Of a stretch of 64,000 bases of DNA, positions 4,928-37,068 are shown one piece after another. This DNA comes from Psychromonas sp. psych-6C06 (GTDB lineage: Bacteria; Pseudomonadota; Gammaproteobacteria; Enterobacterales; Psychromonadaceae): NCBI RefSeq assembly GCF_002835465.1, contig NZ_PIZM01000001.1, positions 620,001 to 684,000 of the forward strand, written 5' to 3'. Numbering within the stretch: position 1 is the first letter of the stretch; every line of letters begins with the position of its first letter. Made by a program: the position numbers and the translations under genes. The notes below the pieces were generated by a model, which saw only the letters and a list, made by a program, of their open reading frames with translations, was not told where the DNA came from and made no database searches.

Positions 4928-4955
4928 TGTTAGTCTCCTGATCTGTTTTAGTTTA

Positions 4956-4976
4956 TTGTATCATTTATTGATACAA
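4956..4976. promoter_or_regulatory. Candidate LysR operator palindrome
   Basis: TTGTATCA (4956-4963) and TGATACAA (4969-4976) are perfect inverted repeats around 5 bases. The dyad carries the ATC...GAT pattern common to LysR-type sites. It lies in the divergent region close to the LysR start. A second small dyad, CATTG-TTA-CAATG, occurs at 4995-5007. Confidence 0.6.
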
Positions 4977-5075
4977 AGACATTCATTTCATCTGCATTGT
5001 TACAATGAAATTGGCTGTGTAGACTGATTGCATCTTAAAAACGTTGGTTATTAACTTAAATAAGCGAGGATAGCG

Positions 5076-5765
5076 ATGAGTACTAAGAAAATATTAATGG
5101 TGTTAACTTCACATGATGAGTTAGGTAATAGCGGTGAAAAAACTGGCTTTTGGGTAGAAGAATTTGCTGCCCCTTATTATGCTTTCAAGGAAGCGGGTGT
5201 TGAGATAACACTCGCATCACCATTGGGTGGACACCCGCCGATTGACCCGAAAAGTGAATTGAATGACTTTCAAACACCGGCTACTGAAAAATTCTATAAA
5301 GATGATGAAACACAGCAACTTCTTGCGCAAACAGATGTTTTATCTAAGCTCAATGCTGATGACTTCGATGCAGTTTTTTATCCTGGTGGACATGGTCCAT
5401 TATGGGATTTAACAGAAAATAGTGATTCGATCACTTTAATCGAATCTTTTTTAAACAACGATAAGCCGGTTGCAACGGTTTGTCATGCCACCGCTGCTTT
5501 GTTAAATGTCAAAGACCGTGATGGTGAGTTTGCTGTAAAAGGTAAAGCCATCTCTGGCTTTACAAATAGTGAAGAAGCGGCGGTTCAGTTAACTGATATC
5601 GTGCCGTTTTTATTAGAAGATGCATTAATTAAACGAGGAGCAGATTATCAAAAAATCGATGATTGGCATCCCTTTGCAGTACAAGATGCTTTGATTATTA
5701 CCGGGCAAAACCCAGCAAGCTCAATATTGGTTGCACAAAAATTATTAAACCAACTTAACGCTTAA
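5076..5765 (+). CDS. DJ-1/PfpI family protein (Hsp31-like, glutamine amidotransferase type 1 fold)
   Basis: This 229-residue cytosolic protein has the nucleophile elbow VCHATAALL with Cys136-His137, the conserved FYPGGHGPLWDL loop at 101-112 and a Glu at 28-29 in GFWVEEFAAPY. This is the active-site set of the Hsp31/DJ-1 group. Members are glyoxalase III (methylglyoxal to lactate without glutathione) and/or carbonyl-stress chaperones. A GAGG ribosome site precedes the ATG. It is the first gene of the run divergent from the LysR gene and is followed 26 bases later by the aldehyde reductase gene, supporting a role in aldehyde detoxification. Confidence 0.85.
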   Translation: MSTKKILMVLTSHDELGNSGEKTGFWVEEFAAPYYAFKEAGVEITLASPLGGHPPIDPKSELNDFQTPATEKFYKDDETQQLLAQTDVLSKLNADDFDAVFYPGGHGPLWDLTENSDSITLIESFLNNDKPVATVCHATAALLNVKDRDGEFAVKGKAISGFTNSEEAAVQLTDIVPFLLEDALIKRGADYQKIDDWHPFAVQDALIITGQNPASSILVAQKLLNQLNA

Positions 5766-5791
5766 TTATTTTTTATTGTGAGGTATTTATT

Positions 5792-6949
5792 TTGTTAAAT
5801 TTTAGTTTTCAGAACCCAACAAAAATTCACTTTGGTGAAGATCAAATTCATCTGATTGAAAGTGAGATCCCGGCGGATGCAAAAGTATTAATGGTTTATG
5901 GCGGTGGTTCAATCAAAAGTAATGGTGTCTACGATCAAGTTAAAGCTGCACTGTCAAAACATACTTGGTTTGAGTTTTCTGGCATTGAGCCAAACCCTCG
6001 CTACGATACCTTGATGAAATCACAGGCGTTAATTAAAGCGCATAACATTGATTACATTCTTGCAGTAGGCGGTGGCTCTGTCGTTGATGGCGCTAAATTT
6101 ATTGCGGCGGCTGCTTTATATGAAGGTGAAGATGCGTGGAACATTTTGGCTAAACAAGAGCCTGTTCAACAAGCATTACCCATTGGTGCAGTATTAACGT
6201 TGCCAGCGACGGGCTCTGAAAGTAACGGTAATTCGGTAGTGACGCGCGATGGAAATAAATTACCGTTTTCAAGTGCATTAGTACGCCCACAGTTTGCGGT
6301 ACTAGATCCTAAAGTGACTTTATCCCTATCGGATCGTCAAATCAGTAATGGTGTCATTGATGCTTTCATCCATGTGATGGAACAATACCTGACTTATAGT
6401 GTAAACGGAAAAGTACAAGATCGCTTTGCAGAAGGGTTATTGCAAACGTTGATTGAAGAGGGCCCGAAAGCACTCGCTACTGACACAAAAGAAGATTTAG
6501 TGGTACGTGCGAATATTATGTGGTCGGCTACGATGGCATTAAATGGATTGATTGGTGCAGGCGTACCACAAGATTGGTCGACCCATATGATTGGTCATGA
6601 GTTAACGGGCAGTTTTGGGATTGATCATGCGCGTACTTTATCGATTGTATTACCTGCTGTGATGAAGGTAAAGCGTAAAGAGAAGCATGAAAAACTCGTA
6701 CAATTTGCTGAACGTGTATGGCATATCAACGAAGGTAGTGACGATCATAAAGTTGATCAGGCAATTGTATTAACTGAAACGTTTTTCCAAGAGATGGGGG
6801 TGCCAACACGTCTTTCTGATGTCGATCTTAATGCTGAAGATATCGATGGTCTGATTGAAAAATTAGAGCAACATGGCATGGTTGCATTAGGTGAGCATGG
6901 TGATATTTCACTTGATGTAAGCCGTGAAATATTAAGACTTGCGTTGTAG
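5792..6949 (+). CDS. yqhD: Iron-containing alcohol dehydrogenase, YqhD-type aldehyde reductase
   Basis: This 385-residue cytosolic enzyme belongs to the group III metal-dependent alcohol dehydrogenases. The nucleotide-binding GGGSVVDGAKF motif and the metal-ligand segments NGVIDAFIHVMEQY and WSTHMIGHELTGSFGIDHARTL (Asp and three His) are present. The MLNFSFQNPTKIHFGEDQI start is characteristic of YqhD, an NADPH-dependent reductase of short aldehydes including lipid-peroxidation products and glyoxals. The start is TTG, supported by a GAGG ribosome site eight bases upstream and family N-terminal agreement. It lies between the DJ-1 and CurA-like genes, all on one strand. Confidence 0.85.
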   Translation: MLNFSFQNPTKIHFGEDQIHLIESEIPADAKVLMVYGGGSIKSNGVYDQVKAALSKHTWFEFSGIEPNPRYDTLMKSQALIKAHNIDYILAVGGGSVVDGAKFIAAAALYEGEDAWNILAKQEPVQQALPIGAVLTLPATGSESNGNSVVTRDGNKLPFSSALVRPQFAVLDPKVTLSLSDRQISNGVIDAFIHVMEQYLTYSVNGKVQDRFAEGLLQTLIEEGPKALATDTKEDLVVRANIMWSATMALNGLIGAGVPQDWSTHMIGHELTGSFGIDHARTLSIVLPAVMKVKRKEKHEKLVQFAERVWHINEGSDDHKVDQAIVLTETFFQEMGVPTRLSDVDLNAEDIDGLIEKLEQHGMVALGEHGDISLDVSREILRLAL

Positions 6950-7025
6950 TTTATCCGTTATTAAAGCGAACTCTTTATTGAGATCGTTTTTTTACGCTAT
7001 TTATAAGATAAAGAGAGAGTAAAGC

Positions 7026-8075
7026 ATGAGCCAAAATCAACAAACTAATCGACAAATACGTTTGGCATCTCGCCCTTTTGGCGCGCCAACTCAAGAAAAC
7101 TTTAAAACAGTTCAATCTGATATTCCAACGCCAAAAAAGGGTGAAGTTTTATTACGTACCGTTTACTTATCGCTTGACCCTTATATGCGTGGCCGTATGA
7201 GTGATGCTGCATCCTATGCTGAGCCAGTCGCTATTGATGGCGTCATGGTCGGGGGCAGTGTTTGCCGTGTAGAGCAAACAAATAACGCTGATTTTAACGT
7301 TGGAGATTGGGTCGTTGCCTTTGGTGGATGGCAAGATTACTGTATATCTGATGGTGTTAACTTACTTAAATTAGATCCAAATATGGGTAATCCTTCCTAT
7401 GCATTAGGTGTTTTAGGGATGCCTGGTTTGACCGCCTATATGGGGCTGTTAGATATTGGAGCCCCTAAAGCGGGTGAAACCGTTGTGGTTGCTGCAGCTA
7501 CTGGCGCTGTTGGCAGTTTAGTCGGACAAATCGCGAAAATTAAGGGCTGTAAAGTCGTTGGTATCGCTGGTGGCGAAAAAAAATGTAACTATGCTGTTGA
7601 AACGCTAGGCTTTGATGCTTGTTTAGATCATTACTCTGATGATTTAGTGACACAACTCTCGCAGGCTTGTCGTGAAGGGATTGATGTCTATTTTGAGAAT
7701 GTCGGTGGGAAAGTATTTGATGCAGTATTGCCTTTATTAAACCCTGCTTCACGCATTCCATTGTGTGGGCTTATTTCACAATACAATGCAACTGAGTTAC
7801 CGAGTGGGCCAGACAGAATGTCTGCATTAATGGGCGCATTATTAGTAAAACGCGTCCGTATGCAAGGTTTTATCGTTTTTGATGATTATGGGCACCGTTA
7901 TTCTGAGTTTGCTAGTGCAATGACGCAGTGGTTAATGGAAGGTAAAATAAAGTATCGTGAACATTTAGTTGAAGGCTTTGAAGAATCGATACCTGCTTTT
8001 ATTGGGCTACTTGAGGGTAAAAACTTTGGTAAATTAGTGGTGCGTGTTGGGCCCGACAGTTTAACGCAAGGATAA
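7026..8075 (+). CDS. NADP-dependent medium-chain oxidoreductase (CurA/2-alkenal reductase family)
   Basis: This 349-residue cytosolic enzyme of the zinc-free MDR branch shows the hallmark LSLDPYMRGRM near residue 55. It also has the Rossmann segment AATGAVGSLVGQIAKIKGCKVVGIAGG and YFENVGGKVFDAVLPLLN. Relatives include E. coli CurA (YncB) and leukotriene B4 12-hydroxydehydrogenase, which reduce the carbon-carbon double bond of alpha,beta-unsaturated aldehydes and ketones using NADPH. It follows the aldehyde reductase by 76 bases and precedes the glutathione transferase by 3, suggesting joint handling of reactive carbonyls. The exact substrate cannot be read from sequence. Confidence 0.88.
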   Translation: MSQNQQTNRQIRLASRPFGAPTQENFKTVQSDIPTPKKGEVLLRTVYLSLDPYMRGRMSDAASYAEPVAIDGVMVGGSVCRVEQTNNADFNVGDWVVAFGGWQDYCISDGVNLLKLDPNMGNPSYALGVLGMPGLTAYMGLLDIGAPKAGETVVVAAATGAVGSLVGQIAKIKGCKVVGIAGGEKKCNYAVETLGFDACLDHYSDDLVTQLSQACREGIDVYFENVGGKVFDAVLPLLNPASRIPLCGLISQYNATELPSGPDRMSALMGALLVKRVRMQGFIVFDDYGHRYSEFASAMTQWLMEGKIKYREHLVEGFEESIPAFIGLLEGKNFGKLVVRVGPDSLTQG

Positions 8076-8078
8076 GTT

Positions 8079-8687
8079 ATGATAACCGTTCATCATTTGA
8101 ATGCATCTCGTTCTCAACGTGTATTATGGTTACTCGCAGAGTTAGATATTGCCTATGAGTTAGTTAACCATCAGCGTGACCCGAAAACGCAATTAGCGCC
8201 AGAAAGCCTAAAAGCGATACATCCGCTCGCTAAAGCACCAGTTATTGTTGATGGTGCATTAACATTGTGTGAGTCGGGTGCAGTAGTAGAATACATTTTG
8301 AATAAGTATGCACAGGGGCGTTTACGACCTGCTATTAACGATGCAAATTATTATGCTTACCTTGAGTGGATGCACTTTGCCGAAGGTTCGCTAAGCTTGC
8401 CATTGATCACATTATTATTCATGGGTATGGAAAGGCGAGAGGGAGAGCTACCGATGGATGGGTACGTGGCTAAAGAGATTGCTCTGGATTTCGATTACAT
8501 TGAGTCAGTATTAAGCCAACGTGCATATTTCGCCGGAGAGATGTTTACTGCTGCCGATATTATGATGACTTTTATGCTCGAAATTGCAAATAAACTCGGT
8601 ATTTTACAGGGACGTCCATACACGCTCACTTATCTTAAAAAAGTGCAGCAACGCGATGCTTATCAACGTGTTTTAACCTTAGGTTAA
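8079..8687 (+). CDS. Glutathione S-transferase
   Basis: This 202-residue cytosolic protein has an N-terminal thioredoxin-like domain (residues 1-80) with ASRSQRVLWLLAELDIAYE and the cis-proline KAPVIVDGALTLCESGAVVEYIL, including the glutathione-binding ESGA. A helical C-terminal domain follows. Such enzymes conjugate glutathione to electrophiles or act as peroxidases. It is effectively coupled to the preceding CurA-like gene (3-base gap) and is the last gene before a strong terminator, so it closes the electrophile-detoxification unit. Confidence 0.9.
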   Translation: MITVHHLNASRSQRVLWLLAELDIAYELVNHQRDPKTQLAPESLKAIHPLAKAPVIVDGALTLCESGAVVEYILNKYAQGRLRPAINDANYYAYLEWMHFAEGSLSLPLITLLFMGMERREGELPMDGYVAKEIALDFDYIESVLSQRAYFAGEMFTAADIMMTFMLEIANKLGILQGRPYTLTYLKKVQQRDAYQRVLTLG

Positions 8688-8700
8688 TAGTTGCTGTAAC

Positions 8701-8735
8701 GCGATAACACATCAATGTGTTATCGCTTATTTTCT
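8701..8735 (+). terminator. Rho-independent terminator after the GST gene
   Basis: A perfect 11-base stem, GCGATAACACA / TGTGTTATCGC, with a TCAA loop is followed by TTATTTTC. It ends the 5.1-8.7 kb transcription unit. Confidence 0.85.
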
Positions 8736-8897
8736 CAACTTTGCACGATAACGAATTACCCCTGTGAAAACATAACTCCTTACACATCCTGTTTTTTTCC
8801 CATTAATAAATATTGTCACTGCGCAATTTCGTTCAATCATGTGATGTAAATTGGCGATATAGTAAACCTAGAAATTTAAGGGAATTAAAGAGGTTTT

Positions 8898-9500
8898 ATG
8901 ATATCTGTATTAATGTCGATGTTTGTCTTTGCGTTTATTGGCGCGATATCACCAGGACCTGTGAATATAATCGCAACAAGCTCTGGTGCTTCATTTGGCT
9001 TTAAGCGAACATTACCACATGTATTAGGTGCGACAATCGCTTATACATTAATTGTATTTGTGGTGGGGCTTGGGCTAAGCGCAACCACGGTGGCTCTCCC
9101 GGTGATCACTGAATGGTTACGCTATATAGGAAGTGCTTTTTTATTGTATATGGCTTTTAAAATAGCGACAGCTGTCGCAGTGAACACACCTAAAATTAAC
9201 GTTATCAGTCAACCTCCTTCTGCATGGCAGGGCGCTTTATCACAAGGCTTAAATCCGAAAGCGTGGTTAGTCTCTAGCTCTGGTGTGAGTATATTTGTTA
9301 CCACACATTCTCAACCATTCTTTTATTTATTCATTTTTTGTGTCGTCTCTTTTACTTTGTGTCTATTGGGGATTTCTACATGGGCTGTTATGGGGCATTC
9401 GATTCGAGGCTTCTTATCCACTCACAAAAGACAAATTAGCTTCAATATTTTAATGGCATTGATGTTATCGATGTTGGTATTTACAATACTGTTGCAATAA
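8898..9500 (+). CDS. LysE/RhtB-family amino-acid exporter
   Basis: This 200-residue inner-membrane protein has about six hydrophobic segments. The family signature GAISPGPVNIIATSSGASFGFKRTLPHVLGA is at residues ~14-45, and LSQGLNPKAWL is in the second half. RhtB-type proteins export amino acids such as threonine, homoserine or leucine, or small related metabolites. The start has an AAAGAGG ribosome site. It is followed by an AraC-family regulator on the same strand, a common pairing in which the regulator controls the exporter. Substrate unknown. Confidence 0.88.
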   Translation: MISVLMSMFVFAFIGAISPGPVNIIATSSGASFGFKRTLPHVLGATIAYTLIVFVVGLGLSATTVALPVITEWLRYIGSAFLLYMAFKIATAVAVNTPKINVISQPPSAWQGALSQGLNPKAWLVSSSGVSIFVTTHSQPFFYLFIFCVVSFTLCLLGISTWAVMGHSIRGFLSTHKRQISFNILMALMLSMLVFTILLQ

Positions 9501-9506
9501 GACTAA

Positions 9507-9533
9507 ATCACTTTCTAAATTCCATTGGTATAA
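9507..9533 (-). repeat. Solo end of the MITE-like repeat family
   Basis: Read on the minus strand, TTATACC-N15-GTGAT matches the left end of the element at 2121-2145, sharing TTATACCAAT and AGTGAT at identical spacing. Only this end is recognisable. It fills most of the 58-base gap between lysE-type and araC-type genes. Confidence 0.4.
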
Positions 9534-9558
9534 GGGATTAAATCCGTTGGAGTGTTCT

Positions 9559-10362
9559 ATGAAACAAGATAAAACTGTTTTTTTCAGGCAAAGTGAACAG
9601 CTACCATTTGTCGAAATGCGTCAGGCATCCGCTTCGACGGCTTGTTATCACGCTCATTCACACGATGAGTTCTCATTTGGAGTTATTGACTCAGGGGTAG
9701 CCGATTATCAAAACCTCAATCAACGCTTGCGAATTGGTGCGGGTGATACCGTAACAATTAACCCTGCTGATGTGCACGCTTGTAATCCACATGAAGGTGA
9801 CTGGTCATATCGAATGTTGTTTATTAAAGCAGATTGGGTAGGTCGTTTACAGTCTGAAATAGACGAGAAATTAAGTTGTGATTACTTGTCCTTTGCGGCT
9901 GTTTTTCATCGCTCTCCCGATGCTTATCAACAATTCCAACGTTTATTTAACGCCTTACAATATGAACAAAACCCGTTAAACGTTGAAACTGAATTGATTA
10001 ACTACCTTCAGAGGTGCTTTTTTAGTGACGTCGATAAAAAGACAGATTTATCGCAGCTATCTCAGGTAAAAGCACAAATTGCAGATCAACTTGATATAAA
10101 CCATTCCTTAACGGAGCTAGCAAAAACCGCAGGGTTAAGTCGATATCATTTAATTCGTAGTTTTAAACAACGTTATGGTTTATCTCCCCATGCTTTTCAG
10201 CTTGATGAGCGAATCAAAGCAGCCAAAACATTGCTTAAAAATGGGCATTCATTAATTGATACTAGCCATCAGTTAGGCTTTGCAGATCAAAGTCACTTAC
10301 AACGAAACTTTAAAAAACGTTTAGCGGTAACGCCAAAACAGTATCAATCCTATTTTATTTAG
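9559..10362 (+). CDS. AraC-family regulator with N-terminal cupin sensor
   Basis: This 267-residue transcription factor has N-terminal ~100 residues that form a small cupin-like domain (CYHAHSHDEFSFGVIDSG ... DTVTINPADVHACNPH) binding a small ligand. The C-terminal ~100 residues carry two helix-turn-helix units (SLTELAKTAGLSRYHLIRSFKQRYG and DTSHQLGFADQSHLQRNFKKR). This is the architecture of AraC regulators linked to LysE-type exporters, and such a gene lies directly upstream. The ATG at 9559 is chosen because GGAG sits eight bases before it; the longer TTG frame from 9547 would overlap that ribosome site. Confidence 0.88.
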   Translation: MKQDKTVFFRQSEQLPFVEMRQASASTACYHAHSHDEFSFGVIDSGVADYQNLNQRLRIGAGDTVTINPADVHACNPHEGDWSYRMLFIKADWVGRLQSEIDEKLSCDYLSFAAVFHRSPDAYQQFQRLFNALQYEQNPLNVETELINYLQRCFFSDVDKKTDLSQLSQVKAQIADQLDINHSLTELAKTAGLSRYHLIRSFKQRYGLSPHAFQLDERIKAAKTLLKNGHSLIDTSHQLGFADQSHLQRNFKKRLAVTPKQYQSYFI

Positions 10363-10648
10363 CTGCTGACGACTAAAAGGCTGCTGGAACTAACGATAAT
10401 GTTTGGCTAAATAAGGCATATGTATAAAAAACCTTAATATTTAGGACGATATTCGTTGAGCACCTGTTTTGCTTAAAATTTAATGGTAGTTGCTTATTTT
10501 AACAAACTGACCCTTTATCTAGATGTTGGCTATTGGAGTAACGTTGCGGGGGGCGACTAATTTTCCGGTATTATTAAGCAATTATAGGCAAATACGATGA
10601 TTTATATTACTATTCAGCGAGTTTAGCGTGTTTTTTTAAAGGACTTTT

Positions 10649-11356
10649 ATGAATAACCCATTTTCGCAAATCACAAGTGGCTCAAGAAGCTTACACGTAC
10701 AGATTGCACGTGATATTGCGCGTAAAATCTTATCTGCTGAGATTCAGCAAGGTGAATTGATCGCTTCAGAAGTTATACTTTGTCAGCAATTTAATGTTAG
10801 CCGGACAGCACTACGTGAAGCGATTAAATTGTTAACCTCAAAAGGGTTGTTAGAATCAAAGCCGAAAGTTGGTACGCGTATTACTAATCGCGATAGATGG
10901 AACTTTTTAGATCCGCAATTGTTAGATTGGATTGCAGACATGGGAGATAATGAAGCCGTATATCATGAGTTCTTAGCATTACGTCGTGCCATTGAGCCGG
11001 CCGCCGCTGCATTAGCTGCTGTGAATGCGACTGCAGAGCAACGAATTTTATTGTCGGAAACCTTTCAAGAGATGGAAAAACTCGCCGAGGAGTTTGATGC
11101 AGTTCGTTGGACTGAGGTTGATACACAGTTTCATCGTTTAGTTTTTCTTTCAACTGGGAACGGTTTTTACCTGCCTTTCGCCAATATATTAGCAACCATG
11201 TTTAAACGCTTTATTGCTCACTCTTCTGAAGAAGGCGGGACTTGTCTGAAAGAGCATCGTGCAATCTATACGGCGATTATGTCTGGAAACGCAGAAAAAG
11301 CGAGGGAGGCGAATGTTAGCCTGTTACAAAACAGTAAGCACCGTTTACCTAGTTAA
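10649..11356 (+). CDS. GntR/FadR-family transcriptional regulator
   Basis: This 235-residue regulator has an N-terminal winged helix-turn-helix of GntR type (residues ~12-75: ASEVILCQQFNVSRTALREAIKLLTSKGLLESKPKVGTRI). A C-terminal all-helical FCD domain with a probable metal site follows (RRAIEPAAA, DTQFHRLVFLSTGN, EHRAIYTAI). FCD regulators bind small organic acids such as sugar acids, lactate or pyruvate; this one resembles galactonate-type repressors. No catabolic genes sit beside it, so its targets are elsewhere or it is autoregulated. An AAAGGA ribosome site precedes the ATG. Confidence 0.88.
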   Translation: MNNPFSQITSGSRSLHVQIARDIARKILSAEIQQGELIASEVILCQQFNVSRTALREAIKLLTSKGLLESKPKVGTRITNRDRWNFLDPQLLDWIADMGDNEAVYHEFLALRRAIEPAAAALAAVNATAEQRILLSETFQEMEKLAEEFDAVRWTEVDTQFHRLVFLSTGNGFYLPFANILATMFKRFIAHSSEEGGTCLKEHRAIYTAIMSGNAEKAREANVSLLQNSKHRLPS

Positions 11357-27767: not shown

Positions 27768-28673
27768 ATGTTGTATGGATTTGATGTGGGTGGTACCAAA
27801 ATTGCGTTTGCTGTTTATGACCAAGAATTAAATTGCTTGTTTGAAGATCAGACACCAACCCCGCTAGATTACGCCTCTTTTATTACCACTATCAGTGATA
27901 TGGTTCGCCAAGCAGATACTAAGTTTGGGGTAAAAGGGCAAGTAGGTTTAGGTTTTCCTGGTGCGATTAATCCAGAAGATATGACCCTAAATTGTGCAAA
28001 TGTACCGGCTATCAAAGGGCGTCCTTTAATTCATGATCTTTCAGTTTCATTAGATCGTGATATTAAGCTCGAAAATGATGCAAACTGTTTCTTATTATCA
28101 GAGTGTTTTGGTGGCAGTGCAGATGGTTGTACAACAGTATTAGGCGTTACGCTAGGTACGGGTGTTGGTGGTGCTATTTTTGTTAATGGTGAAATATTAA
28201 CGGGTCAAAACTCATTTGCCGGCGAAATTGGACATTACCCATTACCTGCGACTGTGTTAAAGAAACATCCTGAGCTTCCGGATTTAACTTGTGGTTGTGG
28301 TCGTCAAATGTGCTTAGAGACCTATGTATCTGGCACTGGACTTGGTAACCTATACAAGCACTATGCTAAAAAACCATTGAAAGGACCTCAAATTTTAGAG
28401 AAATTCCGTGCTGGCGACAAAACGGCTCAAAAAGTAGTTGATGTATATTTTGATATCCTTTCCGCTGGTGTCGCGACAGCAATGATGGTACTTGATGCTG
28501 ATGCTATTGTATTTGGTGGTGGTTTATCTAAGTTTGAAATCCTAGTTGATGAATTTACAAAACGTTTACCGGCACACCTGTTAAATGATGTAAAATTACC
28601 AATTGTCGTTACTGCTAAATTTGGTGGCGAAGGCGGCGTACGTGGTGCAGCACTGCTTAACTATAAAAAATAA
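27768..28673 (+). CDS. nagK: N-acetyl-D-glucosamine kinase (ROK family)
   Basis: This 301-residue cytosolic ROK kinase has the phosphate-binding YGFDVGGTKIA at 3-13, LENDANCFLLSECFGG and LGVTLGTGVGGAIFVNG. The zinc-binding cluster CGCGRQMCLETYVSG is also present. Length and order match E. coli NagK, which phosphorylates free GlcNAc from cell-wall recycling or chitin breakdown to GlcNAc-6-phosphate. A strong AAAAAGGAA ribosome site precedes the ATG. It is flanked by terminators on both sides, so it is a single-gene unit. A GH18 chitinase-like gene lies ~6.7 kb downstream beyond the Mks operon. Confidence 0.92.
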   Translation: MLYGFDVGGTKIAFAVYDQELNCLFEDQTPTPLDYASFITTISDMVRQADTKFGVKGQVGLGFPGAINPEDMTLNCANVPAIKGRPLIHDLSVSLDRDIKLENDANCFLLSECFGGSADGCTTVLGVTLGTGVGGAIFVNGEILTGQNSFAGEIGHYPLPATVLKKHPELPDLTCGCGRQMCLETYVSGTGLGNLYKHYAKKPLKGPQILEKFRAGDKTAQKVVDVYFDILSAGVATAMMVLDADAIVFGGGLSKFEILVDEFTKRLPAHLLNDVKLPIVVTAKFGGEGGVRGAALLNYKK

Positions 28674-28866: not shown

Positions 28867-31800
28867 ATGGCTCAGCAAGCCTATCAATTACTGCGTATTA
28901 TTCTTATCGATAGCTTTTGGAAAAAGCAGGTTAATGAACTTGATTTAACAGGCCATACTCAACTTGAAGGCACCAATGGTGCGGGTAAAACGTCTTTAAT
29001 GCGCTTGTTGCCTCTGTTTTATGGTATGCGCCCAAGTGATATCGTCAGTAAGGTTGATCAAGCGAAAAACTTTGCTGATTATTATTTACCTCGCGATACC
29101 AGTTTACTGGTTTATGAGTACCAACGTCCCTATGGACAAACTTGTATGGTACTCGCTAGTAGTGATGGCCGTGCAGTCCATTATAAATTGGTTGATGCCG
29201 CTTACGATAGCAGCCTGTTTATCCGTGACAAGCAACGCTTAACCATTAATGAAATTGAACGAAATTACCGTAGTGCTGGAGCTTTTTGTTCTAGTTTTCT
29301 CGGCGTTGATAAATATCGCCAAGTGATTCAAAAGTTACGTAGTGGACGTAAAATAAAAGATGTGCGTGAATTACAAAATCGTTTCTCTTTTACAGATAGT
29401 GCGTCACCGCATATTGATAAAGTAGTTAATGGCACGATTGAAAAAAACCTCGATTTTGAAGCGGTAAAACGGATGCTGGTGGAAATCGCCAGTGATCATC
29501 TTGCCCGACATGATATTGAAGAAAAAGAGAAAATTAGCTTAAACAAAGAGGATATCAGTCATTGGCTTGCTGATATTCAAGCCAGCCGTGCGATTCAAAA
29601 AGTAGCCGATAAAATTGCCCTTTGGCAAACTGATTTTAGTAGCTTAGATAGCCTGTTAAACAAGTTGCAACACCTACATTTTGAGATGCTGAAACATCAA
29701 GAACAACTACAGTTAAAACAGCAAAATCAACAGGCCGAGAAAGACAAAACCATTACTGAGTTGGATATATTAGAAGCAGAGTTAAAACTGTCTTCCTACG
29801 CTTTTAGAAAAGATATTAGTGAGCTAACGGCGAAAATTGAAGCGGATCAAAGCCGAATTGACCTGCTTGATGAAGACAAATTGAATTATGAAGATAATGA
29901 TGCTGCTAGTTTTCAACTTCAAGCTGACCAAGCACCACGTATTCAGCATGAGCTCAACGAAGTTAATGAGATCATCGCAGCCTTCGAAGGTAACCTAAGT
30001 AAAATTCAAAATAAATTTGAAAAGCTAATCAATCAAGTTAAGCAACAAAAAATGGTCGATATGACCGCTAATAAAGAGCAACGGTTTACTGCCAAAGAAG
30101 CTGCTTCTGTGCAGTTAGCAGTAATATCAGAAACGCAGCAAGCACAACTCGCTACACTGAACGAGCAACTTAATGCAACCAATTTGAAGCTCAATATGCG
30201 CAAGCAAGCACTTGAGAACGAGGTCAAACAGTGTCAACAGCAACAAAATAATCCGACGCTTGATAGCGATCTACTCACGGCGATTGAAGAGAATCAATTA
30301 CAACTTGGGCAAACCCATGAGTCACAGTCTTTAGTCCTCGCGCAGCAAAATCAGTTTAATCATCAACTAAGCGTACTTGAAACACAACGGTTGCAATTAC
30401 TTGAGAAACACAAACAACAAGGGCGTCATTTAGAGACCATAAAAGCACAGCGCCATGAAATCGAATGTCAACTCATTCCCAAAGAGGGCTCGCTGCAGCA
30501 TTTTTTAGCGAATGAACCTGAGGCTAGTGCATGGAAAGACAACATCGGCCGTTTGTTATCGACAGAGCAACTAAGTCGTGCTGATCTTTCACCTAAATGG
30601 TGTGGTGCATCGGACACAATATATGGCTTGCAGCTTGATCTGTTACAGCTACAAGAGAGCGATCTGCAGTTAAGTGAAGATCAACTGCGAGAAAAAGCAT
30701 CATTATTAGATGATAAAGCGGTACAGATTAGTGACAGTATCAGCGCATTCGAGCTACAACTTAAAGAGTGTAATAAACAGATCCAATCGTTGCAGGTTAC
30801 AATTGCTGAGGCAAAGCAAAGTGGCCAACAAAACGAGTTAAAACTTGAGCAATTAAAAACACAGCAACAACATCTTGGTGATAAAAAAACACGGGCCATT
30901 AAAGCACATCAACAAAGCTGTGAAGTGCAACTTAAACAGCTGCAGGCAGAGCAAAAAGAAAATCGTCTAAAAATCGAGGCTTTTCAAGAGCAACAACAGG
31001 ATGAACGTTTAGCACTTCATAACGTAATGCTTGAGCAACGTATGGTGGTTGAATCTGATCGTGATAGTCAACTTGATGAATTAGATAGCCAATTACAAAA
31101 AATCGAAAGTAGCGCAGCAGAACGTCTTCGTGATTATAAAAAGCAACATAGCAGTGCACTCAGTGAACTTGACCCTGATGGTGAGGTTGATAAACGTACT
31201 AAACAACGTATCGAACTGGAAAAAGGTTTAGATGAATGTGCGGTTTGGGCACGCAAAGCGCGTGAATATTCACAGTTTATGAATGAACGATACATTCATC
31301 GTGACAAGTTGGTTGAAGTGAATCAAAACCGTGAAATTGAAAAGCGTGGTTTTGAAAATAGCTTAGAGGATTTACAGTCTGAAAAGGGCAATGCGATCCG
31401 TGAAAATCAAAAAACGCTGAAAAGATTAAACACACAACTTCGTGCTAATAGTGAGCTACTAACGCAGCTTAACGATAGTAAACAACTGTGTGAAAAGGCG
31501 GGTATTAGTGCGGTTGAATGTGTGACAGAGCCTAATAATGAAGCTGATTTAACGGTGAGTTTCTGTTTTGATTGGTTGAAGCAGTTTGAAGTAGTAGAAA
31601 AACGTTTAACGGGTCAGTTACAACGCTTTAATGAAACCTTTAAAAAGAACCATGCTAGCAGTGAACTGTTTGAAAACTGGCAAAAATTGGTGGCAGATAA
31701 TGATACTTATCAAGGTGCGCGCAGTCTGTTTAAATATCGCGATCCTATTAGCGATCTACTCAGTAGCGCAGAGCAAAAACAGAAGAATACTTATCAACTG

Positions 31801-32559
31801 GTGACCGTCAATGCCAATATGATCAACGAGTTTTATCAACATATTGAGAACTTTGGTCGTCGTATTAAAAGTATCGGTAAACAGCTCTCTAAAAACGTGA
31901 CCTCTTTGGCGCACTTTGAAGCGCTTGCCGATATCAATGTTTACACAGTGATGAAGCAAGAAGAGCTAGAATATTGGGGACCATTACAACAGTTTGCTAA
32001 ATTGTTTGAGCAATATCGTGATGATTTACGAGAAGGGATGGGGGATATACCCGATGATCTTGTTTATGCAATGCAGAAGCTTTCTAGCTATTTGCCGAGT
32101 GATGGTTTTGTATTAGCGCACCATAACTTATTTGATATTGAATTTTCAATTAGTGAAAAAGGGCAGCTTAAATATGCGCGTAATGCTCGACAGCTGAAAA
32201 AGATTAGCTCTACGGGGCTTTCATACCTTGCGATGCTATCGCTTTTTGCCGGCATTTTGGGCATGTTACGCGGGCAAACTGAATCGCCTTCAAATATCAT
32301 TTTACCGGTTGATGAATTGGGTGAGTTAGCAGCTGAAAATGTTGATCTGTTATTGAAGATGTTTTCCGATAACCACATCAGCATGTTGAGTGCATCACCA
32401 TCAACGGATCGCCATATTCTTTCGCTTTATAAGCGCCATTATAAAATTAAAGACAATAAAATTTTCCATGCGCAGATACCCCAGTCACGTATCGATGAAC
32501 TCCTTGCGCTTCGTTTAAAACAGCAGCAGAATCAACAAGCGGAGGCTAGCCATGTTTAA
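28867..32559 (+). CDS. MukB/MksB/JetC-like SMC-family ATPase
   Basis: This 1230-residue protein has an N-terminal Walker A GTNGAGKTS (35-43). A very long coiled-coil middle rich in Gln, Leu, Glu and Lys follows (about 250-1000, with a break that could be the hinge). The C-terminal head carries an ABC signature SSTGLSYL (about 1114-1121) and Walker B ILPVDE with Asp1149-Glu1150. This is the layout of MukB-like condensins; length is between MksB (~900-1000) and MukB (~1480) and close to JetC of Wadjet. It should dimerise, bind ATP and DNA, and extrude loops. Start ATG 28867 has AAGGAT upstream; the TTG at 28846 is rejected. The next gene overlaps its end by 8 bases. It is the first gene of the operon, unlike mukFEB, mksFEB or jetABCD. 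Confidence 0.85.
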   Translation: MAQQAYQLLRIILIDSFWKKQVNELDLTGHTQLEGTNGAGKTSLMRLLPLFYGMRPSDIVSKVDQAKNFADYYLPRDTSLLVYEYQRPYGQTCMVLASSDGRAVHYKLVDAAYDSSLFIRDKQRLTINEIERNYRSAGAFCSSFLGVDKYRQVIQKLRSGRKIKDVRELQNRFSFTDSASPHIDKVVNGTIEKNLDFEAVKRMLVEIASDHLARHDIEEKEKISLNKEDISHWLADIQASRAIQKVADKIALWQTDFSSLDSLLNKLQHLHFEMLKHQEQLQLKQQNQQAEKDKTITELDILEAELKLSSYAFRKDISELTAKIEADQSRIDLLDEDKLNYEDNDAASFQLQADQAPRIQHELNEVNEIIAAFEGNLSKIQNKFEKLINQVKQQKMVDMTANKEQRFTAKEAASVQLAVISETQQAQLATLNEQLNATNLKLNMRKQALENEVKQCQQQQNNPTLDSDLLTAIEENQLQLGQTHESQSLVLAQQNQFNHQLSVLETQRLQLLEKHKQQGRHLETIKAQRHEIECQLIPKEGSLQHFLANEPEASAWKDNIGRLLSTEQLSRADLSPKWCGASDTIYGLQLDLLQLQESDLQLSEDQLREKASLLDDKAVQISDSISAFELQLKECNKQIQSLQVTIAEAKQSGQQNELKLEQLKTQQQHLGDKKTRAIKAHQQSCEVQLKQLQAEQKENRLKIEAFQEQQQDERLALHNVMLEQRMVVESDRDSQLDELDSQLQKIESSAAERLRDYKKQHSSALSELDPDGEVDKRTKQRIELEKGLDECAVWARKAREYSQFMNERYIHRDKLVEVNQNREIEKRGFENSLEDLQSEKGNAIRENQKTLKRLNTQLRANSELLTQLNDSKQLCEKAGISAVECVTEPNNEADLTVSFCFDWLKQFEVVEKRLTGQLQRFNETFKKNHASSELFENWQKLVADNDTYQGARSLFKYRDPISDLLSSAEQKQKNTYQLVTVNANMINEFYQHIENFGRRIKSIGKQLSKNVTSLAHFEALADINVYTVMKQEELEYWGPLQQFAKLFEQYRDDLREGMGDIPDDLVYAMQKLSSYLPSDGFVLAHHNLFDIEFSISEKGQLKYARNARQLKKISSTGLSYLAMLSLFAGILGMLRGQTESPSNIILPVDELGELAAENVDLLLKMFSDNHISMLSASPSTDRHILSLYKRHYKIKDNKIFHAQIPQSRIDELLALRLKQQQNQQAEASHV

Positions 32560-33175
32560 GCAAACCGTACAAAAGTTATTAACTGGTGAAATCATCTGTG
32601 AAACCGCCTTTGCTGAGCAGTTTGAATACCTAAACGGAACTGAAAACCGCGAACGGGTGGAAGACTTTTTAGCTAACTTAGACAGAAATTTAACCTACCT
32701 TGACAGTGCTGACGCATATTATGCAACCTTTCAACAGGTGGAGCAGGAAAACAGCCACGAGTTAACACAACTGTTTTTAGAAGTCCGATCATCATTTCGT
32801 CCGTTAGTGGAGTTTTTAGAGCTACTATTAACGGCAACGCAAACGGATCTGCCATTACGTGCTAAATCGATGGTCAATATTAACAGCCTGTTTGACCCCT
32901 TTGAACATGATCAAACCTTACGTGAGCAACTGCATCGCTTAACCACCATTAAACCTTTTAAAACTAATAAATTAGCCTCACGCGAACAGTTAGTGACTAT
33001 TTTTCAAAAGTTAGAAGAGATGGGCTATTTCGTGCGTAAAAATAGTGGTAGTAGCCGTTATTATGCAACCGCGCGTTTTGATTTAATCTATCTATTAATT
33101 GAGTTTTTAAATGATTCTGAACGGGTAGAGTTACCGGAAACTATTGTGCAAACCCAAGAGGAGTTACTCTTTTAA
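32552..33175 (+). CDS. MukE/MksE/JetB-like condensin accessory subunit
   Basis: This 207-residue, mostly helical acidic protein has the features of tandem winged-helix KITE subunits. It has an N-terminal VQKLLTGEIICETAFAEQFEYL segment and a C-terminal winged-helix-like LASREQLVTIFQKLEEMGYFVRKNSGSSRYYATARFDLIYLLIEF. Length equals that of MukE and JetB (DUF4194-type). It is preceded by a GGAGG ribosome site inside the end of the SMC gene and overlaps it by 8 bases. The next gene starts on its stop codon. Assigned by size, predicted fold and position between the ATPase and kleisin; sequence similarity is weak by eye. Confidence 0.68.
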   Translation: MFKQTVQKLLTGEIICETAFAEQFEYLNGTENRERVEDFLANLDRNLTYLDSADAYYATFQQVEQENSHELTQLFLEVRSSFRPLVEFLELLLTATQTDLPLRAKSMVNINSLFDPFEHDQTLREQLHRLTTIKPFKTNKLASREQLVTIFQKLEEMGYFVRKNSGSSRYYATARFDLIYLLIEFLNDSERVELPETIVQTQEELLF

Positions 33176-34416
33176 TGGCTGCCTATAACGCTTCTGATGT
33201 GGCCGATTTACTGCGTCAAATTGGTGCTCATGATCAACTGCTTGCCGATGCTTACGTCTATGGCACGGTGACCGAGTTACAAAGTGAGTCGCGTAAAATT
33301 GCCAGTTTGCATAAAAGTGGTTTGTTACGACCCGATGATGAGTTGGGAGATTATCGCATTACCGCAGAGCTAAAACGGATGCTCAATCGCTTAATGCGTA
33401 AACAAAGCAGTTATCGGCAACTCAGTGATATGGGAAAGGTGATCGATACCCTTGATGATATGGTTAAAGATTACCGTTTATCGGTGCAGAGTAATCAGCA
33501 GGACGATGCAGAGTATTATTTAGATCAGCTTGATGATCTGCTTTATGAAGCCAAGGATAACTTGAATGTTAGCCTTGAGAATATGCATCATGCTATCTCA
33601 AGTCAGTTTGGTTTTGTCAGCACACTGAGCGCTAAGGTACGCGAAAATGAACGTGCCTTGGCCTATGCGCAAAAATTATTAACCGAATTACAACAGGTCG
33701 ATCCTGAGACCTGTTATGAGTGGGCAGATTGGGCTTGTCCCAGTGACTTTGCACGTAAAATAAGTGGTTTTGTTTATTGGTTTAATCAAACCCTGCCAAG
33801 GTTGCGCTTTATCATCGATAATATGCGCTTAAGCTTATTTAGACTGCGAAGAGATGAAAAGCAGGCCAGCTTATTACGTAATATGGCGCGTTATCTGCAC
33901 CAGCATCCTGAATTTGAGATCAGTGATTCATTGTTCGAAGATGAACAGTTACCGCAAGCTTTAAAGTTTGCACCGCCCATGCCACTAAAAAGTTATGTCG
34001 ATACGCGTAATAGTGAAATTGAAACACCACTTGTGGCGCTGGTTCAAGCCTTGCGCAAACCTGCACAGAGCTCACGCATTGTTGAGCGTGAAGTAAGTGA
34101 TTTAGACGTCACAGCGTTACAAGAATTTGTTATCGACCATGATTATTTTGAGGAGCAAACTGAGCACCTGTTTGAGCAGGTTATTAAGCATGGCATGCCT
34201 ATCTCTGCGCTGCAGTTTTGGGAGAATGCTCTTAAAAGTTGGATAAATGAAGAACAATTAATTGAGCCTACCGATTGGGTGGAACTGGTGTTTAGTAGTT
34301 ATTGTAAATTGACCAATGATCAACAGGATGCGATTGATATAAAACCAAAGGGCGCGTTAGTCTCTGGGACGACCGACAACTATACCTATAGTGATGTTGT
34401 GGTGTTATTGCGATAG
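33175..34416 (+). CDS. MukF/MksF/JetA-like kleisin subunit
   Basis: This 413-residue helical protein has an N-terminal winged-helix region (~5-80: VADLLRQIGAHDQLLADAYVYGTV ... LHKSGLLRPDDELGDYRITAELKRML). A long helical core (~90-260) and a C-terminal small winged-helix-like domain (~335-400: ALQFWENALKSWINEEQLIEPTDW) follow. This is the layout expected of a kleisin that links two SMC heads. JetA/MksF homologues are 400-500 residues. Start and previous stop share one base, and the TOPRIM gene begins 22 bases downstream. Assignment is from context and architecture, not from a diagnostic motif. Confidence 0.65.
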   Translation: MAAYNASDVADLLRQIGAHDQLLADAYVYGTVTELQSESRKIASLHKSGLLRPDDELGDYRITAELKRMLNRLMRKQSSYRQLSDMGKVIDTLDDMVKDYRLSVQSNQQDDAEYYLDQLDDLLYEAKDNLNVSLENMHHAISSQFGFVSTLSAKVRENERALAYAQKLLTELQQVDPETCYEWADWACPSDFARKISGFVYWFNQTLPRLRFIIDNMRLSLFRLRRDEKQASLLRNMARYLHQHPEFEISDSLFEDEQLPQALKFAPPMPLKSYVDTRNSEIETPLVALVQALRKPAQSSRIVEREVSDLDVTALQEFVIDHDYFEEQTEHLFEQVIKHGMPISALQFWENALKSWINEEQLIEPTDWVELVFSSYCKLTNDQQDAIDIKPKGALVSGTTDNYTYSDVVVLLR

Positions 34417-34438
34417 GGAAGAGTATTAGGGGGCAAAG

Positions 34439-35308
34439 ATGAATAAAAAGCTGTTTGAGTATTGTCAAAAACACCTGCGTGATTTGCCCTTTGGGCAATT
34501 AAAATCGACGCCTTCCCTAAAAAAGCTAGCTGATGATTATAACGTGGGTTATATCGATAATGGCCGTTTCTATTTTACTGCAAAAGACAAGCAACACCTG
34601 ATTGAGATGGTTGCGCTAGAGCACAATGGCATACATCTGTTTCGCGATCATTATCCTCAAGCTCAGTCACGTATCGTTGCAGCGACTTGGCAACGCAATG
34701 AGAAACAACATGCTTTAAATGTGACGGAAGCTTTTGTACTGGTTAATAGCCTTAATTCACTGCGCATTAATAACCAGGAGATAGCACTCAATTCGCTCAC
34801 TACATTGGGTCAATATGTGTGTGCTGATGAGATAAAAACCATTCAACACCCACAAATTATACTAGTTGAGAATCTCATCGTCATGGCTAATCTATCCAGA
34901 TTAGCGATTCCTGATTGTTTAAAAAATGCGTTGTGGTTATATCGTGGTGATATCAAAGCACAACAGCAAACCAGTCGCGCCTATCAGTTTTTTAAAGCCT
35001 TTAAAGAAACCCATCAACTGATCTGTTTTAGCGATTTAGATCCAAGCGGTTTACAAATTGCAATGACATCAGGTGCTTCACAGTTCCTCAGTATTGGCGA
35101 TGAGTGCGAGCTTAAAGTCAGCTTGCAAGGTGAAGAACAACAGTGGTTTAAACAGCAAAACGCGATCAGTTATCTTAATAACAATCTATTAATGAGTCCG
35201 CCATTAAATAGGTTGTTTGACGCGATGAAACAGAGCCAGAAAACCTTAAAACAAGAGCACATGGTTGCGCACTATCTCAAATTGAAAATTTATCCGCTAT
35301 TTGCTTAA
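34439..35308 (+). CDS. JetD/MksG-like TOPRIM nuclease-type protein
   Basis: This 289-residue protein has a C-terminal TOPRIM domain: Glu144 in IILVENLIVMANL, then Asp199 and Asp201 in ICFSDLDPSGLQIA. This is the acidic triad and DxD-P-x-G pattern of JetD/MksG and topoisomerase VI A-type TOPRIM domains. In Wadjet, JetD is the nuclease that cuts circular DNA once the SMC motor has extruded it. The protein is shorter than typical JetD (~350-400), mainly at the N-terminus, where a winged-helix-like segment (residues ~1-60) remains. A strong AGGGGGCAAAG ribosome site precedes the ATG. It closes the four-gene operon. Confidence 0.75.
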   Translation: MNKKLFEYCQKHLRDLPFGQLKSTPSLKKLADDYNVGYIDNGRFYFTAKDKQHLIEMVALEHNGIHLFRDHYPQAQSRIVAATWQRNEKQHALNVTEAFVLVNSLNSLRINNQEIALNSLTTLGQYVCADEIKTIQHPQIILVENLIVMANLSRLAIPDCLKNALWLYRGDIKAQQQTSRAYQFFKAFKETHQLICFSDLDPSGLQIAMTSGASQFLSIGDECELKVSLQGEEQQWFKQQNAISYLNNNLLMSPPLNRLFDAMKQSQKTLKQEHMVAHYLKLKIYPLFA

Positions 35309-36582: not shown

Positions 36583-37068
36583 ATGTTAATTACTAAAGAC
36601 AGTGCGGTTCAATTTCATTACATTTTAAGTGAAGCAGGAAAAGAGATTGAGTCAAGTTTTGATGATAAACCCTTGGTTTATTTGCATGGGCATGGTGGTA
36701 TTTTTCCGGCATTAGAAGAAGCGCTCGAAGGCAAAGGTGCGGGTGAAAAATTGGAAGTTACATTAACACCTGAGCAAAGTTACGGTTACCCACGAGAAGG
36801 TAGCATTCAACGTATTCCTATCAAACATTTACAAGTTGCAGGAAAATTACAAGTTGGTGCAACCGCATTAGTTGAGTCTAATCAAGGTCGTCAAGAAGTG
36901 ACGATTGTTAAGCTTGGTAAATTTAATGCCGATTGCGATTTAAACCATCCATTTGCAGGTAAAACATTGACCTTTACCATTCAAGTAGTGAATGTACGTG
37001 AAGGAACCGCTGAAGAGATCTCACATGGGCATGTTCATGCTGCTGGTGGCTGTGGTCACGATCATTAA
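36583..37068 (+). CDS. slyD: FKBP-type peptidyl-prolyl isomerase SlyD
   Basis: This 161-residue cytosolic protein has an FKBP domain interrupted by an IF chaperone domain (residues ~70-125: YGYPREGSIQRIPIKHLQVAG). A short His/Cys-rich C-terminal metal tail, HGHVHAAGGCGHDH, follows. SlyD speeds prolyl isomerisation and delivers nickel for hydrogenase maturation in E. coli; the tail here is shorter than the ~50-residue E. coli tail. The conserved YLHGHGGIFPALEEALEGK segment forms the FKBP active site. It lies 24 bases after the GH18 gene and 11 before the glutaredoxin gene. Confidence 0.88.
   Translation: MLITKDSAVQFHYILSEAGKEIESSFDDKPLVYLHGHGGIFPALEEALEGKGAGEKLEVTLTPEQSYGYPREGSIQRIPIKHLQVAGKLQVGATALVESNQGRQEVTIVKLGKFNADCDLNHPFAGKTLTFTIQVVNVREGTAEEISHGHVHAAGGCGHDH

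What the first reader, a model, noticed from the sequence alone, without database searches (positions are those of the whole stretch)
28867..35308. Four-gene SMC / MukE / kleisin / TOPRIM operon with the ATPase gene first
Seen: a tight operon (8-base overlap, 1-base overlap, 22-base gap) encodes a 1230-residue ATPase with Walker A, ABC signature and Walker B, then 207- and 413-residue helical proteins, then a protein with TOPRIM residues Glu144, Asp199 and Asp201. Known: MukBEF, MksBEFG and Wadjet (JetABCD) have these components, but mukFEB, mksFEB and jetABCD put the kleisin gene first. Inference: this is a condensin/Wadjet relative with order JetC-B-A-D. Its setting among housekeeping genes (nagK, GH18, slyD) rather than a defence island suggests a vertically kept role, or plasmid restriction in a new arrangement. 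This is my best candidate for a little-described system in the window.
Basis: partly seen in the sequence, partly recalled or inferred. Interest (0 to 1): 0.78.

Follow-up and report, generated by a model that had tools for sequence, protein, structure and literature searches.

The report
Wadjet-like, likely sole Psychromonas condensin
This four-gene operon encodes a ring-shaped DNA motor with an attached DNA-cutting subunit, related to chromosome-folding and plasmid-destroying machines, and in the marine bacterium Psychromonas it is the only chromosome-folding machine of its class that was found, so it may do both jobs.

Summary
The operon is real and as described. It encodes an SMC ATPase (Pfam DUF3584), a KITE subunit (predicted fold matches JetB/MukE), a kleisin (moderate-confidence fold matches MukF/JetA) and a TOPRIM protein whose family is homologous to JetD, with Glu144/Asp199/Asp201 invariant in 39 of 39 members. 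Its gene order SMC-KITE-kleisin(-D) is that of the DUF3584 family (no exception in 80 named loci), opposite to mukFEB and jetABCD. No window protein matches a PADLOC Wadjet model, so it is a separate branch of the Wadjet/MukBEF group.

The main new point: the genus is Psychromonas. The three-gene core is in 24 of 24 genomes searched (D in 22), mostly at a syntenic locus. ScpB, MukF and DUF3375 kleisin are in 0 of 24, and no canonical Smc frame was seen. In 150 genomes of the order, DUF3584 (59) and MukF (54) meet once. D is absent beside the core in 25 of 73 loci, including a clade of 12.

Most likely: a MukBEF-like loop extruder serving as the genus's housekeeping condensin that, through D, still restricts small circular DNA. 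Its identity is well supported; the chromosomal role is inferred from genome content and untested. The family may already lie in a published Wadjet-group tree whose supplement I could not read.

The parts
28867..32559 (+). SMC ATPase (JetC/MukB position), 1230 aa, Pfam DUF3584 PF12128: conserved ends (heads), weakly conserved arms, short conserved mid-patch (about residues 541-600, likely hinge)
   Evidence: 1073.6 bits; Walker A, signature, Walker B; conservation profile; domain limits are inference
32552..33175 (+). KITE subunit (JetB/MukE position), 207 aa
33175..34416 (+). kleisin (JetA/MukF position), 413 aa
34439..35308 (+). TOPRIM nuclease subunit D (JetD/MksG position), 289 aa, Pfam DUF7281
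   Evidence: 140.1 bits; E144, D199, D201 invariant 39 of 39; JetD_C matched by 14 of 39 members, best 2.9e-7; commonest PADLOC JetD model matched by 17 of 39; family profile against one JetD, E 6.9e-6, probability 84.6; the window's own protein matches no JetD model by itself
27768..28673 (+). upstream neighbour: ROK-family sugar kinase (not part of the system; synteny marker)
   Evidence: PF00480 223.2 bits; in the fetched stretch of 8 of 23 other Psychromonas
36583..37068 (+). downstream neighbour: FKBP-type (slyD-like) gene (not part of the system; synteny marker)
   Evidence: PF00254; in the fetched stretch of 15 of 23 other Psychromonas

Best explanation
The operon encodes a SMC-KITE-kleisin complex of the Wadjet/MukBEF group plus a JetD-type TOPRIM nuclease. 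Two SMC arms joined at a hinge are bridged at their ATPase heads by the kleisin with its KITE subunits; ATP hydrolysis would drive DNA entrapment and loop extrusion (inferred from the family). In Psychromonas it is the only SMC-kleisin-KITE complex found, so the best reading is that the core is the housekeeping condensin that folds and segregates the chromosome, the place held by Smc-ScpAB or MukBEF elsewhere. D would remain as a conditional arm that cuts circular DNA small enough to be fully extruded (the published Wadjet model), and it can be lost without loss of the core. Shown here: composition, folds, motifs, order, conservation, absence of the searched markers of other complexes, repeated absence of D beside the core. 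Inferred: extrusion, the chromosomal role, plasmid cleavage.
For: Composition and folds. Universality in the genus: DUF3584 in 24 of 24 Psychromonas, with the ROK and/or FKBP neighbour in the fetched stretch of 20 of 23 others. No other condensin seen: ScpB 0 of 24, MukF 0 of 24, DUF3375 kleisin 0 of 24, no listed SMC_N match in a frame over 793 aa (list cut); a ~1240-aa P-loop frame listed in 21 of 24 is SbcC in the window's genome. Genus named by contig-length identity with Psychromonas sp. RZ22 and CD1. In the order, DUF3584 and MukF nearly exclude each other: 1 overlap among 59 and 54 carriers of 150. Core without D beside it: 25 of 73 loci, 10 changes of state on a quick tree, including one D-less clade of 12. 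D under constraint where kept: triad 39 of 39; D and SMC distances run in parallel (Spearman 0.84, 47 loci). [quoted passage not shown]
Against: No functional data exist here. 12 of 150 genomes of the order have none of the three markers, one of them a 0.3-Mb genome, so lacking a recognised condensin is not unheard of. In most other carriers DUF3584 coexists with ScpB (42 of 59), so there it is not the sole condensin. D with an intact triad is kept in 22 of 24 Psychromonas, which a defence system would also show. Plasmid records match the SMC in 45 cases, and across the class the family is rare (over the cut-off in 9 of 281 genomes, 3 of these in the order), both typical of defence systems. 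Deleting a true jetABCD in Clostridium cellulovorans left growth and cell morphology unchanged (PMC12287153, passages). The exclusion of DUF3584 and MukF is not corrected for kinship. The kleisin model is of moderate confidence and has no sequence-level match; the SMC's profile matches to MukB and JetC are weak (probabilities 21.8 and 34.3).
Confidence: 0.5

Rival explanations
1. It is purely a plasmid-restriction system: a Wadjet-like complex that extrudes and cuts small circular DNA and has little to do with the host chromosome; Psychromonas organises its chromosome by other means.
For: D belongs to a JetD-homologous family with an invariant triad; D kept in 22 of 24 Psychromonas; plasmid-borne copies, one among transposase genes and one on a conjugative plasmid; rare across the class; 42 of 59 carriers in the order also have ScpB; loss of a true jetABCD without growth defect in Clostridium cellulovorans (PMC12287153, passages).
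Against: Universal and mostly syntenic in a whole genus, unlike the sporadic spread reported for Wadjet (PMC10586767, passages); core kept without D beside it in 25 of 73 loci, and no trace of D in 31 of 34 stretches of 1500 bases behind such kleisins; none of the searched markers of another SMC complex in the genus.
Confidence: 0.32
2. It is a chromosomal condensin in which D is no longer a defence nuclease but a chromosome-processing enzyme, for example one that resolves entanglements by TOPRIM chemistry, as Topo VI/Spo11 relatives do.
For: The D profile finds Spo11 and Topo VI A chains with the motif aligned, below significance (E 0.057 and 0.35); 6 of 39 D proteins match the Top6A/Spo11 TOPRIM model, best 5.5e-8; D persists with its triad in two Psychromonas genomes (G006, G021) where about 5 kb of other genes separates it from the core.
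Against: More D proteins match JetD models than any other family of known function; repeated absence of D argues against an essential chromosomal step.
Confidence: 0.1
3. It is a selfish or plasmid-competition module, captured once by the Psychromonas ancestor and kept by drift or addiction.
For: Plasmid copies in Acinetobacter, Vibrio, Pseudomonas and others.
Against: No loss of the core in 24 of 24 genomes; no match of the kleisin in 50,697 phage records and no close relative of D in viral contigs.
Confidence: 0.05

Closest known systems
Wadjet type I, JetABCD / MksBEFG
   Same: Four parts: kleisin, KITE, SMC and a TOPRIM protein in one operon; D's family is homologous to JetD and the KITE resembles JetB in fold, and in sequence in 10 of 47 members.
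   Different: Order C-B-A-D, not A-B-C-D (a jetABCD locus read as a control); no DUF3375 kleisin; D has 289 aa against 411 and no DUF3322 match; no PADLOC Jet match for the window's proteins; universal in a genus.
MukBEF (E. coli mukFEB)
   Same: Kleisin model ranks MukBEF entries first; SMC C-terminal head aligns weakly with MukB 1341-1436 over signature and Walker B (probability 21.8); D-less relatives have the same three-part make-up; DUF3584 and MukF rarely occur in one genome.
   Different: Order B-E-F, not F-E-B; no MukF Pfam match; nuclease present; SMC of 1230 aa against 1486.
MksBEF of Pseudomonas (passages in PMC10586767 and PMC4255302)
   Same: A three-part MukBEF-like condensin reported to act in chromosome organisation, as I infer for D-less DUF3584 carriers; many DUF3584 carriers also have ScpB.
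   Different: Kleisin-first order mksFEBG as reported in PMC10123090; kleisin of DUF3375 type (recalled for Pseudomonas; the Corynebacterium control rings), not found in Psychromonas.
Smc-ScpAB
   Same: General SMC-kleisin-KITE plan.
   Different: No PF02463 match to the window's SMC; ScpB in 0 of 24 Psychromonas.

Membership tests
Wadjet (types I-III as modelled in PADLOC) | SMC ATPase with Walker A, signature and Walker B | tested here: met
Wadjet (types I-III as modelled in PADLOC) | KITE subunit of JetB type | tested here: met
   fold; sequence in 10 of 47 members, not in the window protein itself
Wadjet (types I-III as modelled in PADLOC) | kleisin of JetA type (DUF3375 / JetA model) | tested here: not met
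   no PF11855 match; no JetA model in 49 members; a kleisin fold is supported
Wadjet (types I-III as modelled in PADLOC) | JetD-type TOPRIM nuclease with E and DxD | tested here: met
   at family level; the window's D alone matches no JetD model
Wadjet (types I-III as modelled in PADLOC) | kleisin-first gene order jetABCD (checked here on type I loci; types II and III recalled, not checked) | tested here: not met
   C-B-A-D in the window and the family; control L163 A-B-C-D by PADLOC, L164 by DUF3375 place and gene lengths
Wadjet (types I-III as modelled in PADLOC) | recognised by PADLOC Jet models | tested here: not met
   no Jet model for any of the four window proteins; control jetABCD found strongly
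Wadjet (types I-III as modelled in PADLOC) | restriction of small circular plasmids | not testable with these tools
   needs an experiment
MukBEF | MukF kleisin (PF03882) | tested here: not met
MukBEF | three-gene operon without nuclease, order F-E-B | tested here: not met
   D present and order B-E-F; E. coli locus as control
MukBEF | chromosome organisation and segregation | not testable with these tools
   inferred only, from absence of other condensin markers
MksBEF(G) | DUF3375 kleisin | tested here: not met
Smc-ScpAB | SMC_N family SMC with ScpA and ScpB | tested here: not met
   no PF02463 or ScpB match in the operon; ScpB in 0 of 24 of the genus; ScpA not searched separately
Broad Wadjet/Mks group (SMC + MukE-like KITE + MukF-like kleisin, optional MksG/JetD) | the three core folds encoded together with optional TOPRIM nuclease | tested here: met
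   kleisin at moderate confidence; group as described in PMC7617805 (passages and one section)

The most novel reading that the evidence does not exclude
Psychromonas runs its chromosome on an 'armed condensin': its one and only SMC complex is a Wadjet-type extruder that both folds the chromosome and carries a JetD-type nuclease able to destroy small circles. The DUF3584 family would then show, within one operon family, the passage between plasmid defence and housekeeping condensin, with D's presence changing about ten times over the 73 loci examined.
Probability: 0.4. Interest if true: 0.85.

Novelty: new variant of a known kind. Interest (0 to 1): 0.7.

Why it matters
[quoted passage not shown] A genus whose only detected SMC complex is of this kind, mostly with the nuclease still attached, makes both points directly testable: delete the core and look for a segregation defect; inactivate D and look for plasmid tolerance. 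It would also show how a condensin that works on the chromosome all the time keeps its nuclease from cutting it. For annotation: PADLOC does not recognise the four window proteins, so the system is easily overlooked.

Tried and rejected
PADLOC and NCBIfam on the four window proteins: nothing relevant. Sequence search of solved structures: SMC alone none; profiles gave no SMC-complex hit for the SMC, kleisin or KITE and weak Spo11, Topo VI A and MksG hits for D (E 0.057-0.51). Family profile against single MukF, JetA, MukE and JetB: no match, so those identities rest on predicted folds and, for the KITE, on PADLOC matches of 10 of 47 members. SMC against JetC aligned only over the Walker A loop. 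D in viral contigs (close relatives only) and kleisin in phages: none.

Considered and rejected: the ~1240-aa P-loop frame listed in 21 of 24 Psychromonas as a second condensin; in the window's genome it is SbcC beside SbcD; the other genomes' copies were judged by length only. Considered: absences as assembly gaps; unlikely, since three of the 24 genomes are single-contig (G006, G010, G022), though G004, G012 and G001 are under 90% complete.

Limits: the Fisher p of 1.6e-14 treats genomes as independent, which they are not; its lists were copied by hand. The tree is a quick one with long-branch warnings. Of 80 named loci, 72 plus the window entered the count of D; dropped were 6 with a short or broken SMC frame and 2 without a called kleisin. 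'D absent' means not in the fetched flank (8 kb); a D elsewhere in those genomes was not excluded, except by DUF7281 search in Psychromonas. L117 was first miscounted as D-less because a longer antisense ORF hid D, and was corrected; L082 and L146 hold only remnants and count as D-less. The D-SMC comparison used 47 D proteins, before the correction. In A1 two rows (L037, L048) were entered with starts that cut the N-terminus before Walker A. My ORF selection hid the KITE behind antisense frames in 8 named loci. ScpA, MukB and MukE were not searched separately. The list is cut at about E 4e-8. Papers not held: Krishnan 2020, Petrushenko 2011, Doron 2018. Supplements could not be read.
Full report
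The SMC has Walker A, signature and Walker B residues invariant in 12 of 12 aligned relatives; D has E144, D199 and D201. Flanks are a ROK kinase, GH18 and an FKBP-type gene by Pfam.

THE FAMILY HAS ITS OWN ORDER. In the fetched loci of Psychromonas and of other families of the order the SMC gene comes first, then KITE, kleisin and, where present, D. Of 80 named loci from a GTDB scan, 66 show SMC-KITE-kleisin in this order, 42 of them with D last; one more has it with a broken SMC, 8 lack only the KITE call (hidden by my ORF selection), 1 lacks the kleisin call, 4 show the SMC alone; none has another order. Named carriers include Shewanella, Ferrimonas, Colwellia MAGs, Alteromonas, Idiomarina, Halomonas, Methylobacter and pseudomonads. 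mukFEB in E. coli and jetABCD in control loci have the kleisin first. PADLOC identifies the control jetABCD strongly and none of the window's proteins. PADLOC's own text describes JetC1 as 'DUF3584 domain; MukB-like', so a distant link was already noted by its authors, but the control JetC itself does not match PF12128 at 0.01.

GENUS AND DISTRIBUTION. Two same-genus genomes have contigs of exactly the length of contigs of Psychromonas sp. RZ22 and CD1 (293,380 and 1,383,088 bases), so I take the genus to be Psychromonas. DUF3584 is in 24 of 24 genomes of it, the window's included. Of the 23 others, 15 have the FKBP gene, 8 the ROK kinase and 20 at least one of these in the fetched stretch. 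Across the class it is rare: 9 of 281 genomes are over the cut-off, 3 of these in the order. In the plasmid collection 45 records match the SMC by tblastn, 20 listed, 4 of the 45 covering 80% of it; 17 are predicted conjugative. An Acinetobacter plasmid has SMC (PF12128) and D (DUF7281) around two genes of fitting length, among transposase genes; a Pseudomonas and a Vibrio plasmid have genes of fitting lengths and order, the Vibrio SMC annotated in two frames (their smaller genes not tested).

THE GENUS HAS NO OTHER DETECTED SMC COMPLEX. In the same 24 genomes ScpB is found in 0, MukF in 0, DUF3375 kleisin in 0; no listed SMC_N match lies in a frame longer than 793 aa (lengths fit RecF, RecN and ABC proteins; names not tested; list cut). 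AAA_29 found a second ~1240-aa frame listed in 21 of 24; in the window's genome it is SbcC with SbcD beside it. Three genomes are single-contig, so gaps do not explain the absences. The same models find ScpB in 74 and MukF in 54 of 150 genomes of the order.

EXCLUSION OF MUKF. Among 150 genomes of the order at least 95% complete, DUF3584 is in 59, ScpB in 74, MukF in 54; 138 have at least one, 12 none. DUF3584 and MukF meet in one genome, G122 (Fisher p 1.6e-14; without Psychromonas 3.2e-12; not corrected for kinship). DUF3584 meets ScpB in 42. It stands alone in 16: the 11 Psychromonas drawn and G049, G086, G091, G101, G115.

D IS DISPENSABLE, BUT CONSTRAINED WHERE KEPT. Of 73 loci with readable core, D is present in 48 and absent from the fetched flank in 25, with 10 changes of state on a quick SMC tree, including one D-less clade of 12 (Alteromonas, Salinimonas, Catenovulum, Thalassotalea and others). 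Of 34 stretches of 1500 bases behind D-less kleisins (one locus counted twice), 31 show no trace of D, two remnants and one a complete D missed before. In Psychromonas D is in 22 of 24; in G007 the next gene begins about 115 bases after the kleisin. In G006 and G021 D lies about 5 kb downstream, behind five and six other frames, with its triad kept. D and SMC distances correlate (Spearman 0.84, 47 loci, Mantel p 0.001), so D mostly travelled with the core; gain and loss cannot be told apart by the count itself, but D's presence in every deep branch except the clade of 12 favours loss.

HOW IT MOST LIKELY WORKS. By analogy with MukBEF and Wadjet (established for those families, inferred here), the complex entraps DNA and extrudes loops with ATP. 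Universal, mostly syntenic retention without any other detected SMC complex, and retention of the core where D is gone, point to a chromosomal role; the constrained D points to retained cleavage of small circles. The chief alternative is pure plasmid defence under strong selection; a true jetABCD can be deleted without growth defect in Clostridium cellulovorans (PMC12287153, passages). I put the combined reading at about 0.50 and pure defence at 0.32.

LITERATURE. 'DUF3584' occurs in 5 held papers, one mention each, none in title or abstract (listing only). 'Psychromonas' with 'MukB': 0; with 'condensin': 4, on other topics by title (listing only). Wadjet, MksB and MukBEF searches (listings) showed no title on this family. 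PMC10586767 (passages) proposes MksBEF arose from JetABCD by JetD loss and reports sporadic distribution of Wadjet. PMC10123090 (passages) reports the conserved mksFEBG order. PMC4255302 and PMC10945525 (passages) name Smc-ScpAB, MukBEF and MksBEF as the bacterial condensins. PMC7617805 (passages and one methods section) places MukBEF in a Wadjet group with several nuclease-less members, found by iterative profile search that demands kleisins of 400-1200 aa; this family could be among them, in a supplement I could not read. Hence 'new variant of a known kind', not 'categorically new'.

Noticed in passing
L166 (Acinetobacter johnsonii plasmid NZ_CP140004.1) 5974-12435; L170 (Vibrio campbellii conjugative plasmid NZ_CP021147.1) 4986-11428; L168 (Pseudomonas sp. 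FeN3W plasmid) 4914-11344: Plasmid-borne DUF3584 operons whose gene lengths and order fit C-B-A-D (SMC and D confirmed by Pfam in L166 only); the Acinetobacter copy sits among transposase genes, the Vibrio SMC is annotated as two frames.
   Followed up: partly
L037 10806-15453 (G006) and L038 10832-16013 (G021): In two Psychromonas genomes other genes lie between the kleisin and D: in L037 five (YkuD, an unknown, DUF3087, an aminotransferase, a zinc alcohol dehydrogenase), in L038 six frames not scanned; D keeps its catalytic residues in both.
   Followed up: partly
L047 7567-8031 (minus) and L064 7575-8036 (minus): An ORF of about 155 aa without Pfam match follows the kleisin in two Psychromonas genomes; one of them (G004) has no D. 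Whether the two ORFs are related was not tested.
   Followed up: partly
family code f3 of the order (G025, G050, G086, G101, G115): No ScpB and no MukF in these genomes; three have DUF3584, G025 has a DUF3375 kleisin, G050 none of the searched markers: perhaps another lineage living on Wadjet-group complexes.
   Followed up: no
genus code g35 of family f25 (G067, G083, G123, G134, G145, G156): These six genomes match both ScpB and MukF, the only such co-occurrence in the 150 genomes of the order.
   Followed up: no
L093 (NZ_BBMY01000146.1, 10953 bases, titled Escherichia albertii NBRC 107761): A small contig carries a complete SMC-KITE-kleisin-D operon that groups with marine relatives on the SMC tree; could be mobile or contamination.
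   Followed up: no
L067 (G049) against L068 (G024), same genus code g2: G024 has D directly behind the kleisin; G049 lacks D there and gave no ScpB match, while the other 9 g2 genomes with DUF3584 have ScpB.
   Followed up: no
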